Position numbers and translations under genes: made by a program | The notes under the pieces: generated by a model | Database searches by the model: none | The model's input: only the letters and a program-made list of their open reading frames with translations | What the model was told of the DNA's origin: nothing | Shown here: in pieces, positions 9,172-16,622 of the stretch | Layout: each line of letters opens with the position of its first letter | How positions within the stretch are numbered: the first letter of the stretch is position 1 | Assembly: GCA_016870775.1 (NCBI GenBank) | Contig: VGAK01000001.1 | Span: 124,001 to 188,000, forward strand | Reading direction: 5' to 3' | Source: Actinomycetota bacterium | GTDB taxonomy: Bacteria; Actinomycetota; Acidimicrobiia; Acidimicrobiales; Ilumatobacteraceae | Length of the DNA stretch: 64,000 bases

Positions 9172-10881
9172 TCACTCTCCGATCAATTCCTTGCGCAGGT
9201 CGCGCTTGACGAACTTGCCGTTCGCGTTCCGTGGCAACGGCTCGGTGCGGAACCAGATCCGCGAGGGGATCTTGTGCTTGGCGATGCTCTTGGCGAGGAA
9301 CTTGCGCAGCTCGTCCTCACCCACGGTCTTGCCGGGTTGGAGAACGACGGCGGCTGCGACCTCCTCCCCGAGGCGCTCATCGGGGATTCCGAAGACGGCC
9401 GCCTCGGCCACCGCATCGTGGTGGTAGATCGCGGTCTCCACCTCGCTGCAATAGACGTTCTCGCCACCCCGGATCACCATGTCCTTGGCGCGGTCCACCA
9501 GGTAGATGAAACCGTCGACATCGATGCGGGCGATGTCGCCTGTGTTCAGCCAGCCGTCCTTGATCGTCTCGGCGGTGGCCTCCGGGCGGTTGAGGTAGCC
9601 CTTGATGGTCACTCCCCCGCGCACGCAGAGCACGCCCACGGTGTCGGGCCCGGGCGGAAGGTCGTTGCCATCCTCGTCGACGAGCTTGCCCTCGAGTGTC
9701 GGCACGAGCGGGCCGCACGACTCGGGCTTGGCGATGAAGAACCGCGCTCCGTTCGCAGTGATGATGCCGTGGGTCTCGGTCATGCCGTACCCGGTGGAGG
9801 GCGCACCGTTCTTGAGCGCACCTGCGATCTTGTGCACGAGGTCGGGCTGGAGCGCGGCTCCACCACCGCCCATTCCCTGCAGCGACGACGTGTCGCGCGT
9901 CGCCCAGTCGGGGTGCAGGAGCAACTCGCGACTCATCGTCGGAACGCCCGAGAAGTTCGTGACGCGCTCGCGCTCGATCAACTCGAGTGCGCGACCCGGG
10001 TCCCACTTGTACATCAGAACGAACTTGGCACCCGATGCGGTCGCTGGGTGCAGGAGACAGTTGCACGCGGTGACATGGAACAGTGGCGTCGGTGCCATGA
10101 AGACCGGCGGCAACGCGGCCGGCACTTCCTTTGGCGGCTCGACATCACCAGCGGCGATCGCTTTCTGCTCTGCCATCGTCATTGCCGTCGTCATCGCGAC
10201 GAGATTCAAGACGTTCGTCACCGAGCCGCGGTTGGTCAGCTGTGCTCCCTTCGGGAACCCCGTGGTTCCGGAGGTGTAGAAGATCGTCGCATCATCGTCG
10301 GGATCGATGTCGACGGCGGGGAGCGCGCCGGGGTCGTCGGTGGCCATCACCTGTTGCCACGAGGTGCCTCCGGCAGGCACCCGGTCGCTCCGGACAGCGA
10401 TCACGTGCATGTCCGGGCGCGGGTCGAGTTGTGCGAGGCGCTCGAGGCGCTCATCGTCGCCGATGAAAGCGGTCGGCACCGAGTCATTGAGTGCGTACTC
10501 CATCTCGGGTGCTGTCCACCATGCGTTCATTCCGACGACCGCCGCACCCATCGACACGACCGCCCAGTAACCCACCACCCACTCGGGGTAGTTGCGCATC
10601 GCGAGCGCAACCCTGTCGTGGCGCTTGACACCGTTCGCGGACAGGTGTGCGACGAGCTTGCGCACCTGTGCGTGCACCTCGGCGTAGGTGTAGCGCTCGT
10701 CCTCGTAGACCAGGTAGTCATTGTCGCCGTGGGCGGCGGCGAGCTCCCAGAAGAAACGCATGTGCGGTGGTGCGGCGGCAAAGACCCTGGTGGGTGCTCC
10801 ACGCAGTTCAATCGTCATGACGGCCAGGGGCGAGCCCTCGGCCTCGAGTTCACGCCGGGCGGCCAGGTAGTGCTCGATCAT
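9172..10881 (-). CDS. Acyl-CoA synthetase (AMP-forming)
   Basis: TIFYTSGTTGFPKGA, GYGMTETHG, GWLNTGDIARID, DRAKDMVIRGGENVYCSEVE; start set at MIEHYLAA. Confidence 0.92.
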   Translation of the reverse strand: MIEHYLAARRELEAEGSPLAVMTIELRGAPTRVFAAAPPHMRFFWELAAAHGDNDYLVYEDERYTYAEVHAQVRKLVAHLSANGVKRHDRVALAMRNYPEWVVGYWAVVSMGAAVVGMNAWWTAPEMEYALNDSVPTAFIGDDERLERLAQLDPRPDMHVIAVRSDRVPAGGTSWQQVMATDDPGALPAVDIDPDDDATIFYTSGTTGFPKGAQLTNRGSVTNVLNLVAMTTAMTMAEQKAIAAGDVEPPKEVPAALPPVFMAPTPLFHVTACNCLLHPATASGAKFVLMYKWDPGRALELIERERVTNFSGVPTMSRELLLHPDWATRDTSSLQGMGGGGAALQPDLVHKIAGALKNGAPSTGYGMTETHGIITANGARFFIAKPESCGPLVPTLEGKLVDEDGNDLPPGPDTVGVLCVRGGVTIKGYLNRPEATAETIKDGWLNTGDIARIDVDGFIYLVDRAKDMVIRGGENVYCSEVETAIYHHDAVAEAAVFGIPDERLGEEVAAAVVLQPGKTVGEDELRKFLAKSIAKHKIPSRIWFRTEPLPRNANGKFVKRDLRKELIGE

Positions 10882-10993
10882 GCCCCCATCATTGCGGGAC
10901 TCGGGGTTCAACCAACAATCAGAGGAGTCCACTGCGGCGACCGGAGATGACCGCACGGGCAACTATGGTCGCCGCCGAGAGCAGGAGGCTTCC

Positions 10994-11884
10994 GTGTCAT
11001 CCACCACCAGCACACCGGTCAGCGTCGTCACCGGGGCCAACTCGGGCATCGGCCGGGCGACGGCCATTCATCTCGCGACCGAGGGCCACCGGGTGTTCGG
11101 CACCGTCCGCTCGCTCGATAAGGCCGCCAAGTTGAACGCGATGGCCGAGGCTGCCGGGGCCGACATCGAACTAGTCGTGCTCGATGTCGCCGACGACGAC
11201 TCGGTCGAGCGCGGTTGGGCCGAGATCGTCGACCGTGCCGGTCGGGTGGACACCCTCGTCAACAACGCCGGCGTCGGCGGGAACGCAGTCACCGAGGAGT
11301 GCCCCGTTTCGTTGTACGCCGAGGTGATGAACGTGAACTTCTACGGTGCGGTGCGCCTCATCCAGCGGGTGCTGCCCCAGATGCGCGAGCGGCGCGGGGG
11401 CACGATCGTGAACATCTCGTCGGTGGTCGGTCGTGTCGCGGCCATCGCCCAGCAGCCGTATGTCACCTCGAAGTGGGCGCTCGAGGCAATGAGCGAGGGT
11501 CTCGCCCAGGAGGTCGCCCCGTTCGGCATCCGCGTGGCGATCGTGGAGCCGGGCATCACCAAGTCGGCGATCTTTGCCAAGAACATCGACGCTCCGAATC
11601 AGACCGGCGCGTACGACGCGCATTACCGGCGCCTCTTCCAGTTCTACGCGCGCGGCATCGCCGAGGCGACCGACCCGATGGAGGTCGCCCGCACGGTCCA
11701 TCACGCGATCACGACCTCTAACCCGGTGCTGCGGTACGCAGTCTCGTGGGGAGGACCCGAGATGGTGGCGAGGCGCCGCGCGATGACCGACGAGGAGTGG
11801 GTGGCAATGGGGGCCCACGCCGACGATGCCGACTACTACGGCGACTTCGAGCGACTGCTCGGGGTGGACATCAGTCCACAGTGA
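10994..11884 (+). CDS. SDR-family oxidoreductase
   Basis: VVTGANSGIGRATA, NNAGVGG, YVTSKWALEAMSEGLA; GTG start with aggagg upstream. Confidence 0.85.
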   Translation: MSSTTSTPVSVVTGANSGIGRATAIHLATEGHRVFGTVRSLDKAAKLNAMAEAAGADIELVVLDVADDDSVERGWAEIVDRAGRVDTLVNNAGVGGNAVTEECPVSLYAEVMNVNFYGAVRLIQRVLPQMRERRGGTIVNISSVVGRVAAIAQQPYVTSKWALEAMSEGLAQEVAPFGIRVAIVEPGITKSAIFAKNIDAPNQTGAYDAHYRRLFQFYARGIAEATDPMEVARTVHHAITTSNPVLRYAVSWGGPEMVARRRAMTDEEWVAMGAHADDADYYGDFERLLGVDISPQ

Positions 11885-11917: not shown

Positions 11918-13234
11918 TCAATGCGGCAGTGCGGCAATCGATGCCGCGTACACCCGACTGCGCGACTCCCAATCACCGAGTGCCTTGGGTGTCGGCGCAC
12001 CGGGGCTGAACGAGACCGTCATTCCCGGTCGGGCGAGCCCGTGTGCGGTGCGCACCGCAGCATCGATGTCGTGACCGCGAATGCGCACAATCGGAAGTGG
12101 TGCCACCGTCAGCACCCGCACGAGGGTCTCGTCGTCACCACCCATGAGCACGATCGCCTCGATGTTCGTCGCGGCAACGAGATCAGCGACCAGCGGGGAC
12201 AGATCGATCCCGCGATCCTCGCCGCCCATGAGCAGTATCAGCCCCTCCCCCGCGAACGACTCGAGTGCGGCAGCGACACCGGTGGGGTTGCTCGCGAGCA
12301 GGTCGTCGACCCATCTGACACCGTCCACCACCTCGACCACCCTCTGGCGCGACGGGAGTGCCTCGAAACCCACCACCGCGGCGGCCACGTGCGCGCTTCG
12401 CACACCGGCCGACCACGCCTCGGCTGCGTTCGCCGCGAGCAGAAGGTTGCGTCTCACATGGGCGGGCACCGATCCGGTGTCGACTGGCGCATCACCGTCC
12501 CGAACGGCGAGCACCCCATCGAGGCGCCACGGACCGTCCACGAACACATCCACGCCGAGCGCCGCGAGTCGATCGCGCCCCACGGAGGTGACCATCGCCC
12601 GCAGACCGGGATGCGCGAAAAGGTTCAATTTGTCCGCGTGGTAGCGCCCCACCGAGCCGTGCCACGACACGTGATCCTCGCCGAGCGCGGTGAGCACACC
12701 GACACACGGGGATGTGGCGCAGTCACTCGCCTGGTACGAGGACACCTCCACCACGGCCACCTCGGACCCCGCGGGAACCGCTGTGACCGGCACTCCGATG
12801 TTCCCGGCGAGGTGCACCCCGCGACCAGCCGCCGAGAGAATCCCCGCGATCAGCGATGTCGTCGTGCTCTTGCCCTTGGTGCCGGTGACACCGATGACGG
12901 TCTCGGGATCCCTCTCGGCGAGCCACAGAGAGAGCAGGCCCGATGAGCGAATCCCGGCGGCGCGCCACGCGGCGACCTCGGGGCGGTAGCGCGAGATGCC
13001 CGGCGACCGCACCACGAAACTGACGCCGGAGGAACCCACGTCGGCCGGACCGCGCACCTCGAGACCGTGTTCGGCGGCGAGACCCCGCGCGGCATCGTCG
13101 ATCTCGTCCACGACCAGGACGATGTCGCAGCCGAGTCGACGGAGCTCTCCGATCGCGGCTCGACCCTCGCGGCCGGCCCCCCACACTGCGACGCGCACGG
13201 CGGCCAGATCGGACAGACGCACGATCTCGTTCAC
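11918..13234 (-). CDS. murD: MurD-like UDP-MurNAc-L-alanine:glutamate ligase (MurD2-type candidate)
   Basis: GVTGTKGKSTTTSLIAGIL, EVSSYQ, GEDHVSWHGSVGRYHADKLNL; 4-bp GTGA overlap with MurL. Confidence 0.85.
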   Translation of the reverse strand: MNEIVRLSDLAAVRVAVWGAGREGRAAIGELRRLGCDIVLVVDEIDDAARGLAAEHGLEVRGPADVGSSGVSFVVRSPGISRYRPEVAAWRAAGIRSSGLLSLWLAERDPETVIGVTGTKGKSTTTSLIAGILSAAGRGVHLAGNIGVPVTAVPAGSEVAVVEVSSYQASDCATSPCVGVLTALGEDHVSWHGSVGRYHADKLNLFAHPGLRAMVTSVGRDRLAALGVDVFVDGPWRLDGVLAVRDGDAPVDTGSVPAHVRRNLLLAANAAEAWSAGVRSAHVAAAVVGFEALPSRQRVVEVVDGVRWVDDLLASNPTGVAAALESFAGEGLILLMGGEDRGIDLSPLVADLVAATNIEAIVLMGGDDETLVRVLTVAPLPIVRIRGHDIDAAVRTAHGLARPGMTVSFSPGAPTPKALGDWESRSRVYAASIAALPH

Positions 13235-14526
13235 GCGAAGAAGCCCCCCATCGCCTCGCGGACCGCGGACGGCACGTGGTCCCCGAGCGCACCCTGAGAC
13301 ACCCGGTGCGCCGGGCCGGCGAGATGTGCGAGTCGTCGCACGACCTCGTGGTTGCTCCACGACGCCGAGGCCGTGAGCGTCCCGATGGCGGCACGCGCTT
13401 CTTCGACGGTCTGAACGCACTCGAAGGGCCTCCGTTCATCGTCCAGAAGGTCCGCGAATCCCCCGACCTGGGATGCATCGTCGAGCATGTCGACCCCGAG
13501 GATCGCCGTCAGCGCCGCCGGCGCCATGTGTGGGGCGAGCGAGAGCGTGATCGATCGGCACTTCGCGCAGTCACCACACCATCGCACCGATCGCCTCGAG
13601 CCGTCGCGCACCCCGACCCTGTTGCAGGAGACGAATTCCGGGTGGAGGGGCGCGCAACGCGCCGCGAAAACCCGTGCGATCTCGGCGTCGCTGCGGTCAC
13701 GGAGCGCAGAGACACAGGCAGCCGACGATCCGATGCCGTGCAGTGCCGCCACGAGCAGCATCTCGAAGGCGTGCGACTTGCTGTGCTGGTGGTTGATCGT
13801 GCGGCCCCCGACGGTGCGCGTGGGGATCGACGCCGAGGCCTCGTTCGCCATCACGACGACGGGTGAGCCGAGGAGTATCGCAGACACGGTCGAGGCGAGC
13901 ATCGTGATGGCGGTGATCGGGATGTGACCGTTCGGTGCGCCGGCCGCGTTCAACTCGAGAATCCCCGGGTCGATCGCCCGATCCACGACCACGAGGTTCG
14001 AGCCGAGGGTCGAGGCGACTCGTCGCGCGGCATCTGACCCGCCCACCGAGAGCAGGATCGGATCGAGTGGACGAAGTGCGGTCGCGACCACGCACGAGTC
14101 CCTCCCGCCGCCCACCGGGATCAACGGGCGACCCGGAGACTCACCGACCGGGATTGCGCTCCGTGCCCCGGGCCTGTGAGCCGTCCCGCCGAGCACGATC
14201 GGGTCGACGATTCCGCTGGTGTGGGCGAACTCGGCCATCCCCTCGCCGAATGCGGACTCCACGAGCGCGCGACCCTCTGATGTGAGGGCGATGTCGGGTG
14301 CTTCGACGATGCACGGCGCGAAAGCCTTCGCATAACTCACCGCCGCCACCATCGCCAGAAGATCCAGGACCGCGACCACCGGTTCCCCGACCTCGTCGGG
14401 GAACCGGAACGACTCGCGGAAAGTCCTTCCACCGGCGGTGCAAAGAAGGTCGACCTCGGCCCCGCGGGCGCGCCACCGCTCCACGACGAGGCGCGCGCGA
14501 CCGGGCGTGTTCGTCACCGTCGGCAC
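13231..14526 (-). CDS. murL: MurL-like UDP-MurNAc-L-Ala-L-Glu epimerase
   Basis: IPVGGGRDSCVV, VVMANEASASIPT, INHQHSKSHAFEMLL, WCGDCAKC; coupled to murD. Family recognised from motifs, not searched. Confidence 0.72.
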   Translation of the reverse strand: MPTVTNTPGRARLVVERWRARGAEVDLLCTAGGRTFRESFRFPDEVGEPVVAVLDLLAMVAAVSYAKAFAPCIVEAPDIALTSEGRALVESAFGEGMAEFAHTSGIVDPIVLGGTAHRPGARSAIPVGESPGRPLIPVGGGRDSCVVATALRPLDPILLSVGGSDAARRVASTLGSNLVVVDRAIDPGILELNAAGAPNGHIPITAITMLASTVSAILLGSPVVVMANEASASIPTRTVGGRTINHQHSKSHAFEMLLVAALHGIGSSAACVSALRDRSDAEIARVFAARCAPLHPEFVSCNRVGVRDGSRRSVRWCGDCAKCRSITLSLAPHMAPAALTAILGVDMLDDASQVGGFADLLDDERRPFECVQTVEEARAAIGTLTASASWSNHEVVRRLAHLAGPAHRVSQGALGDHVPSAVREAMGGFFA

Positions 14527-14633: not shown

Positions 14634-16622
14634 GTGGGTTCCGACAACACCGTCAATGCCGAATCGATCGCTCTCGCGAAGGCGCGGGCCGAAGCCGCGG
14701 CCGCGGCGCTTGCGGCTCAATCCGCGGGTCAGGACGACTCGCACGGCCATGGACCTGTCTCGGGGATCAGCAACCTGGCTCTGACGCTCGGTGCGCTCGG
14801 CATCGTCTACGGCGATATCGGCACGAGCCCGCTGTACGCGCTGAAAGAAGCCTTCACGGAGGAGGGCCACGTCCTCACCGTGGACAGGATCAACGTCTTT
14901 GGCGTGTGCTCACTCGCGTTCTGGTCGCTCGTCATCATCATCTCGATCAAGTACCTGATGTTCGTGATGAAGGCCAACAACAAGGGGGAGGGTGGCATCC
15001 TCGCGCTCACGGTGCTCGTGATGCAGCGCAAGGACACCAAGAAGGTCCGTGGGGCGGGCGCTCTGATCTCGCTCGGGGTCTTCGGAACCGCGCTCCTGTA
15101 CGGAGACGGTGTGATCACCCCGGCGATATCGGTGCTCTCGGCCGTCGAGGGGCTCGAGGAGGTGTCTGCATCGTTCGCAGACTGGGTGGTGCCGATCGCC
15201 ATCGTCATCCTCGTGTTGCTGTTCGTGGTGCAGAGTCGTGGAACCGGCGCCGTCGGCAAGGTGTTCGGCCCGGTCATGCTGCTCTGGTTCACCGTGCTCG
15301 CCCTGCTCGGTCTCTCCAAGATCGCCACCGCCCCAGAGATCCTCCAGTCGGTCAACCCACTGCATGCGGTGCGCTTCTTCCGGCACGAGACGCAACACGC
15401 GTTCCTCTCGCTCGGGTCGATCTTCCTCGTCGTCACCGGTGGCGAGGCCCTGTACGCCGACATGGGCCACTTCGGCCGTCGCCCAATCGCCATGGGCTGG
15501 TACTCGATGGTGCTCCCCGCTCTCGTGCTCAACTACTGGGGCCAGGGTGCGTTCCTGATGAATAACCCCGGGGACATCGAGAGCGTCTTCTTTCGCATGG
15601 CCCCCGATGCCCTTCTCCTGCCGCTGGTGCTCCTGGCGACCATGGCAACGATCATCGCATCGCAGGCACTCATCTCGGGGGTGTTCTCCTTGACGCACCA
15701 GGCGGTGCAGCTCGACTACCTACCGCGCATCAAGATCCGCCACACATCGTCGCAGCACTTCGGGCAGATCTACGTGCCGCTCGTCAACTGGATCCTGATG
15801 GTGGCCTGCGTCGGACTCGTGCTCGGGTTCCGCTCGGCGAGCAACCTGGCCGCGGCCTACGGGATCGCAGTGACGATGACGATGGCGATCACCACATTGA
15901 TCTTCTACCGGGTGCTCACCGACCGATGGAATTGGAGCACACCGCGGGCACTCGCGGTGTGCGCACCGTTCATCATCATCGAGGCCGGATTCCTCGGCGC
16001 GAACATCGTCAAGATTCCCCACGGCGGCTGGTTCGCCCTCGCAGTCGGGGTGATCCTCATGGTGCAGATGCAGACCTGGCGACGCGGTCGCGCGCTTGTC
16101 GCGGCACGCATCCAGCGTGGCGAGCGACCGATCGAAGAGGTCCTCGATGGGACCGGCGAGGTGAAGCGGGTTCCGGGCACCGCAGTGTTCATGTTCAAGG
16201 ATCTCGGCAAGGCACCCCCGGCGCTCGTCAACAACCTGCGGCACAACAAGGTGCTGCACAAGTGCACCCTGCTGGTGTCGGTCGACACCGCCGGGGACCC
16301 CCGGGTCGCACCGCAGGACCGGACCGTGATCACGCGCGTCGAGCCCGGTGTGTTCCAGATCCAACTGGAGTTCGGCTTCATGGAGGAGCCCGACGTGCCG
16401 AGGGCCCTCGCTGCGATCGACCACGCGGGACTCGACTTCGACCCGGAGGACGTGACGTACTTCCTCGGCCACGAGTCGATCATCGCGGGCAAGGCACCGG
16501 GGATGAACCCGGCACAAGAATGGTTGTTCGTGTTCCTGAACCGAGGAGCCGACAGTGCGGCCCGCTTCTTCAACCTGCCGGCGGATCGCGTCTTCGAGGT
16601 CGGGACGCAGGTCGTCATCTGA
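14634..16622 (+). CDS. kup: KUP/HAK potassium uptake transporter
   Basis: LGALGIVYGDIGTSPLYALKEAF, GEGGILALTVLVMQR, YGDGVITPAISVLSAVEGLE, GGEALYADMGHFG. Confidence 0.96.
   Translation: MGSDNTVNAESIALAKARAEAAAAALAAQSAGQDDSHGHGPVSGISNLALTLGALGIVYGDIGTSPLYALKEAFTEEGHVLTVDRINVFGVCSLAFWSLVIIISIKYLMFVMKANNKGEGGILALTVLVMQRKDTKKVRGAGALISLGVFGTALLYGDGVITPAISVLSAVEGLEEVSASFADWVVPIAIVILVLLFVVQSRGTGAVGKVFGPVMLLWFTVLALLGLSKIATAPEILQSVNPLHAVRFFRHETQHAFLSLGSIFLVVTGGEALYADMGHFGRRPIAMGWYSMVLPALVLNYWGQGAFLMNNPGDIESVFFRMAPDALLLPLVLLATMATIIASQALISGVFSLTHQAVQLDYLPRIKIRHTSSQHFGQIYVPLVNWILMVACVGLVLGFRSASNLAAAYGIAVTMTMAITTLIFYRVLTDRWNWSTPRALAVCAPFIIIEAGFLGANIVKIPHGGWFALAVGVILMVQMQTWRRGRALVAARIQRGERPIEEVLDGTGEVKRVPGTAVFMFKDLGKAPPALVNNLRHNKVLHKCTLLVSVDTAGDPRVAPQDRTVITRVEPGVFQIQLEFGFMEEPDVPRALAAIDHAGLDFDPEDVTYFLGHESIIAGKAPGMNPAQEWLFVFLNRGADSAARFFNLPADRVFEVGTQVVI

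What the first reader, a model, noticed from the sequence alone, without database searches (positions are those of the whole stretch)
11918..14526. Alternative D-glutamate route to peptidoglycan: translationally coupled MurD2/MurL-like pair
The MurL-like protein (GGGRDS, NEASAS, NHQHSKSHAFE, WCGDCAKC) overlaps the MurD-like gene by GTGA. In canonical MurD the D-Glu-binding segments read about DSKATN and LSPACASFDMF; here they read DDLLASNPTG and FSPGAPTPKALGDW, so the usual lysine/threonine and Ser-Phe contacts are replaced. That is what one expects if this MurD adds L-Glu and MurL epimerises the product, a pathway described in Xanthomonas (MurD2/MurL) and otherwise rarely characterised. If so, MurI racemase may be dispensable here.
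Basis: partly seen in the sequence, partly recalled or inferred. Interest (0 to 1): 0.78.

Follow-up and report, generated by a model that had tools for sequence, protein, structure and literature searches.

The report
Alternative cell-wall D-glutamate gene pair
This bacterium has apparently lost the two usual genes for putting D-glutamate into its cell wall and uses a known but rarer two-gene route instead, in which L-glutamate is attached first and then flipped; close relatives in the same genus still use the usual route, so the swap can be seen gene by gene.

Summary
Two minus-strand genes overlap by GTGA: murL (13231-14526) and a MurD-type ligase (11918-13234). MurL matches NCBIfam MurL at 1.1e-72; the ligase is the genome's only MurD. 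No MurI and no D-amino-acid transaminase were found. This is not an assembly gap: both native loci are assembled and lack exactly these genes (murD between mraY and ftsW, murI between cysM and rph). MurI-bearing congeners have murI and murD there, and in three of them kup and an acyl-CoA ligase gene are neighbours where murL-murD2 sits here. Of 395 genomes of the class, 46 carry MurL and none of these has a MurI above cut-off. All MurL-paired MurDs surveyed have E. coli K319 changed to Leu/Ile, and all but one have K348 changed to Arg, residues that mutagenesis ties to L-Glu use; 44 of 44 MurDs from MurL-lacking genomes keep both lysines. The pathway is already described (Xanthomonas, Micromonospora), so this is a new member, not a new kind. 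New as far as I could read: the lineage, within-genus switching, MurL-MurD2 fusions, a likely PP-loop core in MurL, and Asp rather than Glu at position 182. No enzyme was assayed.

The parts
13231..14526 (-). [quoted passage not shown]
   Evidence: NCBIfam NF041275 E 1.1e-72; 35-40 invariant residues shared with Xanthomonas, Micromonospora and Acidimicrobiia homologues; AlphaFold pLDDT 93
11918..13234 (-). [quoted passage not shown]
   Evidence: TIGR01087 E 5.2e-62; the only MurD in the genome; MurL-partner signature residues L319, R348, A413, P414 in E. coli numbering
13231..13234 (-). GTGA overlap of the murL stop and the murD2 start (likely translational coupling)
   Evidence: sequence
14095..14112 (-). 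MurL GGGRDS, PP-loop-like ATP-pyrophosphatase motif (residues 139-144)
   Evidence: profile match to TtuA SGGKDS, E 0.0012; Foldseek top hits are PP-loop enzymes; coordinates
13558..13629 (-). MurL invariant Cys cluster SCN...WCGDCAKC (C301, C317, C320, C323)
   Evidence: invariant in alignments A1 and A2; metal binding is inferred only
12287..12307 (-). MurD2 DDLLASN: E. coli K319 position is Leu
   Evidence: Leu/Ile in all MurL-paired MurDs (51 from the genome search, 73 named loci); Lys in 30/30 and 14/14 MurDs of MurL-lacking genomes
12209..12226 (-). MurD2 GGEDRG: E. coli K348 position is Arg (R358 in X. oryzae MurD2)
   Evidence: Arg in 51/51 and 72/73 MurL-paired MurDs; Lys in 44/44 MurDs of MurL-lacking genomes
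12662..12682 (-). MurD2 GEDHVSW: E. coli D182 position is Asp (Glu197 in X. oryzae MurD2)
11987..12010 (-). MurD2 FSPGAPTP: C413 to Ala, A414 to Pro, S415 to Thr
14634..16622 (+). kup potassium transporter, one boundary of the insertion site (neighbour, not part of the system)
   Evidence: Pfam K_trans; neighbour of the acyl-CoA ligase gene in three MurI congeners
9172..10962 (-). AMP-binding ligase, other boundary of the insertion site (neighbour, not part of the system)
   Evidence: Pfam AMP-binding; in G012 it lies about 90 bp from kup

Best explanation
The two genes are a MurL/MurD2 operon that replaces murI and murD. [quoted passage not shown] Shown here: family membership, pairing, loss of murI and of the native murD at their own loci, the specificity-residue signature, and the empty insertion site in congeners. 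Inferred: substrate stereochemistry, the epimerase reaction and the adenylate intermediate (proposed for X. oryzae MurL in PMC8788868).
For: MurL family hit at 1.1e-72. No MurI and the only fold-IV aminotransferase is IlvE. The only MurD in the genome is this one. In MurL genomes mraY is followed directly by ftsW (6 of 6 checked), while murD lies between them in all 9 MurL-lacking loci checked. murI is missing from an intact cysM-rph-rdgB block in all four MurL congeners. MurL and MurI exclude each other: 8 MurL genomes in 61 relatives with no MurI, and 46 in 395 of the class with none having MurI above cut-off (Fisher p 2e-18 ignoring ancestry). K319 to L/I and K348 to R occur only in MurL-paired MurDs. 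Nearly every MurL locus has MurD beside it, including Xanthomonas and Micromonospora. MurL and MurD2 are fused into one protein in two class genomes.
Against: Position 182 is Asp as in canonical MurD, whereas X. oryzae MurD2 has Glu197, and its E197D mutant had altered stereospecificity (PMC8788868). MurL scores 245 bits against a cut-off of 700, but that model is built for Xanthomonadales and every actinobacterial homologue found also scores below it. No enzyme assay exists for this lineage that I could find. The genome is 80% complete.
Confidence: 0.93

Rival explanations
1. The ligase is an ordinary D-Glu-adding MurD that has moved, and D-Glu comes from an unrecognised source (divergent racemase, transaminase, DapF side activity, or uptake); the MurL-like protein does something else.
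For: Asp at position 182 is the canonical residue. Some other class genomes lack both MurI and MurL and must have another D-Glu source.
Against: Those checked keep K319 and K348 in MurD (14 of 14), so losing MurI alone does not produce the signature seen here. MurL sits next to MurD in nearly every genome surveyed and is fused to it in two. No PF01177 or TIGR00067 hit, and the only fold-IV aminotransferase is IlvE.
Confidence: 0.05
2. The pair makes a specialised metabolite or modifies peptidoglycan rather than supplying the main precursor.
For: MurL orthologues of low similarity are reported in a fungus, cyanobacteria and an amoeba (PMC5808125).
Against: It is the only MurD in the genome and the rest of the dcw cluster is intact. 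Neighbours look like housekeeping genes (kup, AMP ligase, transketolase-like). The native murD is absent.
Confidence: 0.02
3. Absence of murI and the dcw murD is an artefact of an incomplete metagenome-assembled genome.
For: Completeness 80%.
Against: Both native loci are on contiguous contigs with their flanking genes and lack the genes; the same holds for murI in three more congeners and for murD in two more.
Confidence: 0.02

Closest known systems
MurD2/MurL of Xanthomonas oryzae (XOO_1320/XOO_1319; Feng 2017, reviewed in PMC8788868)
   Same: Paired genes, no MurI or D-amino-acid transaminase, R358-equivalent Arg, Pro at 414, MurL invariants including GGGxDS and WCxxCxKC
   Different: Position 182 Asp rather than Glu, position 416 Pro rather than Phe (compared with Xanthomonas loci L175 and L178); about 35% identity in MurL; a different phylum
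MurD2/MurL of Micromonospora and Salinispora (in vitro confirmed, PMC8788868)
   Same: Same phylum, same K319L and K348R signature
   Different: In most Micromonosporaceae loci seen here the two genes are divergent, and position 182 is Glu in the Micromonospora examined
Canonical MurI plus MurD, as in congeners of the same genus
   Different: Free D-Glu made first, MurD with K319 and K348, murD located in dcw
PP-loop ATPases such as TtuA
   Same: PP-loop motif (GGGKDS versus SGGKDS); AMP-forming chemistry
   Different: Weak similarity over about 40 residues only (E 0.0012; Foldseek best E 0.005); different substrate

Membership tests
MurL | Sequence membership in the MurL family | tested here: met
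   NF041275 E 1.1e-72, 245 bits over residues 50-406; below the model's 700-bit cut-off, as are all other actinobacterial members seen
MurL | Invariant residues shared with validated lineages (GGGxDS, NGHxPxT, NHQxSK, SCN, WCxxCxKC) | tested here: met
   alignments with Xanthomonas, Stenotrophomonas and Micromonospora
MurL | Encoded with MurD2 in genomes lacking MurI | tested here: met
[quoted passage not shown]
   needs enzyme assay
MurD2 | MurD homologue with Arg at E. coli position 348 | tested here: met
   R in window; 51/51 and 72/73 MurL-paired versus 0/44 in MurL-lacking genomes
MurD2 | K319 replaced (K319T lets E. coli MurD accept L-Glu, PMC8788868) | tested here: met
   Leu in window; Leu/Ile in all MurL-paired MurDs
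MurD2 | Glu at E. coli position 182 (X. oryzae E197); a known determinant, not treated as defining because most MurL-paired Acidimicrobiia MurDs lack it | tested here: not met
   Asp in window and in 43/51 of the class and phylum set; Glu in 60/73 of the named set
MurD2 | Only MurD in the genome | tested here: met
   five Mur_ligase_M hits: MurC, MurE, MurF, FolC-type and this one
MurD2 | Prefers L-Glu over D-Glu | not testable with these tools
   needs enzyme assay
PP-loop ATPase superfamily (for MurL) | SGGxDS-type motif between a strand and a helix in a matching fold | tested here: inconclusive
   motif lies between strand 135-137 and helix 142-150; weak profile and Foldseek support

The most novel reading that the evidence does not exclude
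Within one genus of aquatic Acidimicrobiales the route to cell-wall D-glutamate has been switched more than once by a coordinated three-locus exchange (murL-murD2 in at the kup site, murI and dcw murD out). Its MurD2 selects L-Glu with Asp182 plus Arg348 and Leu319, a chiral gate different from the Glu197/Arg358 pair of Xanthomonas. MurL is a PP-loop adenylating enzyme.
Probability: 0.5. Interest if true: 0.6.

Novelty: new member of a known kind. Interest (0 to 1): 0.5.

Why it matters
D-Glu supply is treated as an essential and conserved drug target (MurI). This locus gives a natural before-and-after experiment in one genus: same genomic sites, two routes, clean gains and losses. It gives a two-residue marker (K319L/I plus K348R) that separated MurL-paired from other MurDs in all but one of the cases checked, and a testable idea for the unexplained ATP use of MurL. 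It also widens the route from the few genera named in the 2021 review to 43 of 267 high-quality genomes in this class sample, which bears on the claim that inhibitors of it would be narrow-spectrum.

Tried and rejected
Assembly-gap explanation for missing murI and murD: rejected by synteny. Second MurD elsewhere: none. D-amino-acid transaminase: the only candidate is IlvE, 319 bits versus 87 bits for D_amino_aminoT. Close relatives of MurL in viral contigs: none confirmed. Pfam domains in MurL: none significant. Rfam in the window: none. One clade of MurL-using species inside the genus: rejected on two marker sets (p-AU 0.031 and 0.0003), although their MurL proteins form one clade at one insertion site; I did not settle whether this is repeated gain by recombination or gain followed by reversion. 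The first marker set (mraY, ftsW) flanks murD, and the second lies near murI and the insertion site, so neither is free of linked recombination.

Full report
What is there. On the minus strand, 14526..13231 encodes a 431-aa protein and 13234..11918 a 438-aa MurD-type ligase; the TGA stop of the first overlaps the GTG start of the second as GTGA. The first matches only one NCBIfam model, MurL (NF041275, E 1.1e-72, 245 bits), and the second matches murD (TIGR01087, E 5.2e-62). Pfam finds Mur ligase domains in the second and nothing in the first.

Genome context. The genome (G000, 1.74 Mb, 80% complete) has no Asp/Glu racemase family hit (PF01177; TIGR00067). Five Mur ligase domains are found: MurE, MurC, MurF, a FolC-type enzyme and the window protein (assigned by me from sequence and context). 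The only fold-IV aminotransferase is a branched-chain one. So there is one MurD and no recognised source of free D-Glu.

It is not an assembly gap. The dcw cluster is on one contig and reads ftsI, murE, mraY, ftsW, murG, murC, murB, ftsQ, ftsZ, ileS: murD is missing from its usual place. In all six MurL-bearing genomes checked mraY is followed by ftsW; in all nine MurL-lacking loci checked murD lies between them. Two MurI-bearing congeners (G003, G007) carry murI between cysM and rph. In this genome and three MurL-bearing congeners the same block (smpB, cysM, rph, rdgB and neighbours) is intact without murI. murL-murD2 sits between kup and an acyl-CoA ligase gene in the MurL congeners; in three MurI congeners (G007, G012, G030) kup and that ligase gene are neighbours, about 90 bp apart in G012. 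In the window an extra SDR gene (10880-11884) also lies between them. In other MurI congeners (G003, G011, G017) kup was not found in the stretch fetched.

Distribution. In 61 relatives, 8 have MurL and none of these has MurI; 50 of the other 53 have MurI. In 395 genomes of the class, 46 have MurL; none has MurI above the curated cut-off, and one (G193) has a weak racemase-family hit at 4e-7. Fisher exact p is 2e-18, ignoring shared ancestry. In the phylum sample 27 of 397 have MurL. A scan of genome contigs gave 80 named loci, among them Xanthomonas, Stenotrophomonas, Rhodanobacter, Dyella, Micromonospora, Actinoplanes, Nocardioides, Gordonia, Solirubrobacter and Acidimicrobiales. Nearly all have a MurD homologue next to MurL, divergent in most Micromonosporaceae. 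Two class genomes encode MurL and MurD2 as one polypeptide of 861 and 877 aa. The congener G008 is the record of an Acidimicrobiaceae bin named ErkenSummer (L105 and L013 are identical), which suggests that the window comes from a freshwater Acidimicrobiales genus; I did not determine its name.

MurD residues. The review of this pathway (PMC8788868) reports that in X. oryzae MurD2 E197 and R358 (E. coli D182 and K348) set L-Glu specificity, that the double mutant E197D/R358K reverts to D-Glu, and that K319T lets E. coli MurD accept L-Glu. My alignment reproduces the published pairs in Xanthomonas (D182E, K348R, A414P, L416F). The window ligase has Leu at 319, Arg at 348, Ala at 413, Pro at 414, Thr at 415 and Asp at 182. 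Position 319 is Leu or Ile in all MurL-paired MurDs examined and position 348 is Arg in all but one. Both are Lys in 30 of 30 canonical MurDs of the relatives. As a control for specificity, I looked at 14 class genomes that lack MurL and lack MurI or have only a weak hit: all 14 keep Lys at both places. The signature therefore follows MurL, not the loss of MurI. The MurL-paired sequences are related to each other, so these counts are not independent events. Asp at 182, shared by most class members, means that the Xanthomonas rule is not the whole story.

MurL mechanism. An AlphaFold model built from the window protein and fetched homologues has mean pLDDT 93. The GGGRDS motif lies between a strand and a helix. 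A MurL profile finds TtuA, a PP-loop enzyme, at E 0.0012 over that motif, and Foldseek's best PDB hits are PP-loop enzymes (TtuA, MnmA, and further down GMP synthetase), though only at E 0.005 and with low TM-scores. PP-loop enzymes adenylate their substrate and release pyrophosphate and AMP (established knowledge), which fits the AMP-forming reaction and the acyl-adenylate proposed for X. oryzae MurL. The two reviews I could read say that MurL lacks known domains (PMC8788868, PMC5808125); the original papers of 2017 and 2019 were not in the library. The Cys cluster C301/C317/C320/C323 is invariant and may bind a metal; that is inference. I regard the PP-loop assignment as likely but not proven.

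Evolution. The four MurL proteins of the genus form one clade at one insertion site, yet the species do not form a clade on two sets of neighbouring housekeeping genes (p-AU 0.031 and 0.0003). The route has probably changed more than once within the genus. The markers lie near the exchanged loci, so recombination could distort this, and direction was not resolved.

Verdict. The finding is real and its interpretation is supported: this is the MurD2/MurL pathway, a new member of a known kind. Interest is moderate: the pathway is known, but the lineage, the clean three-locus exchange inside one genus, the fusion proteins and the specificity marker are useful.

Noticed in passing
class sample, e.g. 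G219, G236, G231, G139, G196, G226: Roughly 46 of 267 high-quality genomes of the class have neither MurL nor a MurI match, and others have only weak racemase hits; those checked keep canonical K319/K348 MurD, so another D-Glu source is likely.
   Followed up: partly
L072 (G069), L066 (G216) and L116 (same protein as L066): MurL and MurD2 are fused into one 861-877 aa protein; position 182 there is Cys, neither Asp nor Glu.
   Followed up: partly
L119 (MurD next to MurL): The only MurL-paired MurD examined without Arg at position 348 (Val instead).
   Followed up: no
window 13231-14526 and 11918-13234: MurL and MurD2 differ more between congeners (43-47% identity between G000 and G001) than canonical MurD does between MurI congeners (55-71%).
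   Followed up: partly
window 10880-11884: An SDR gene lies between murD2 and the acyl-CoA ligase gene in this genome but was not found there in the congener G001.
   Followed up: no
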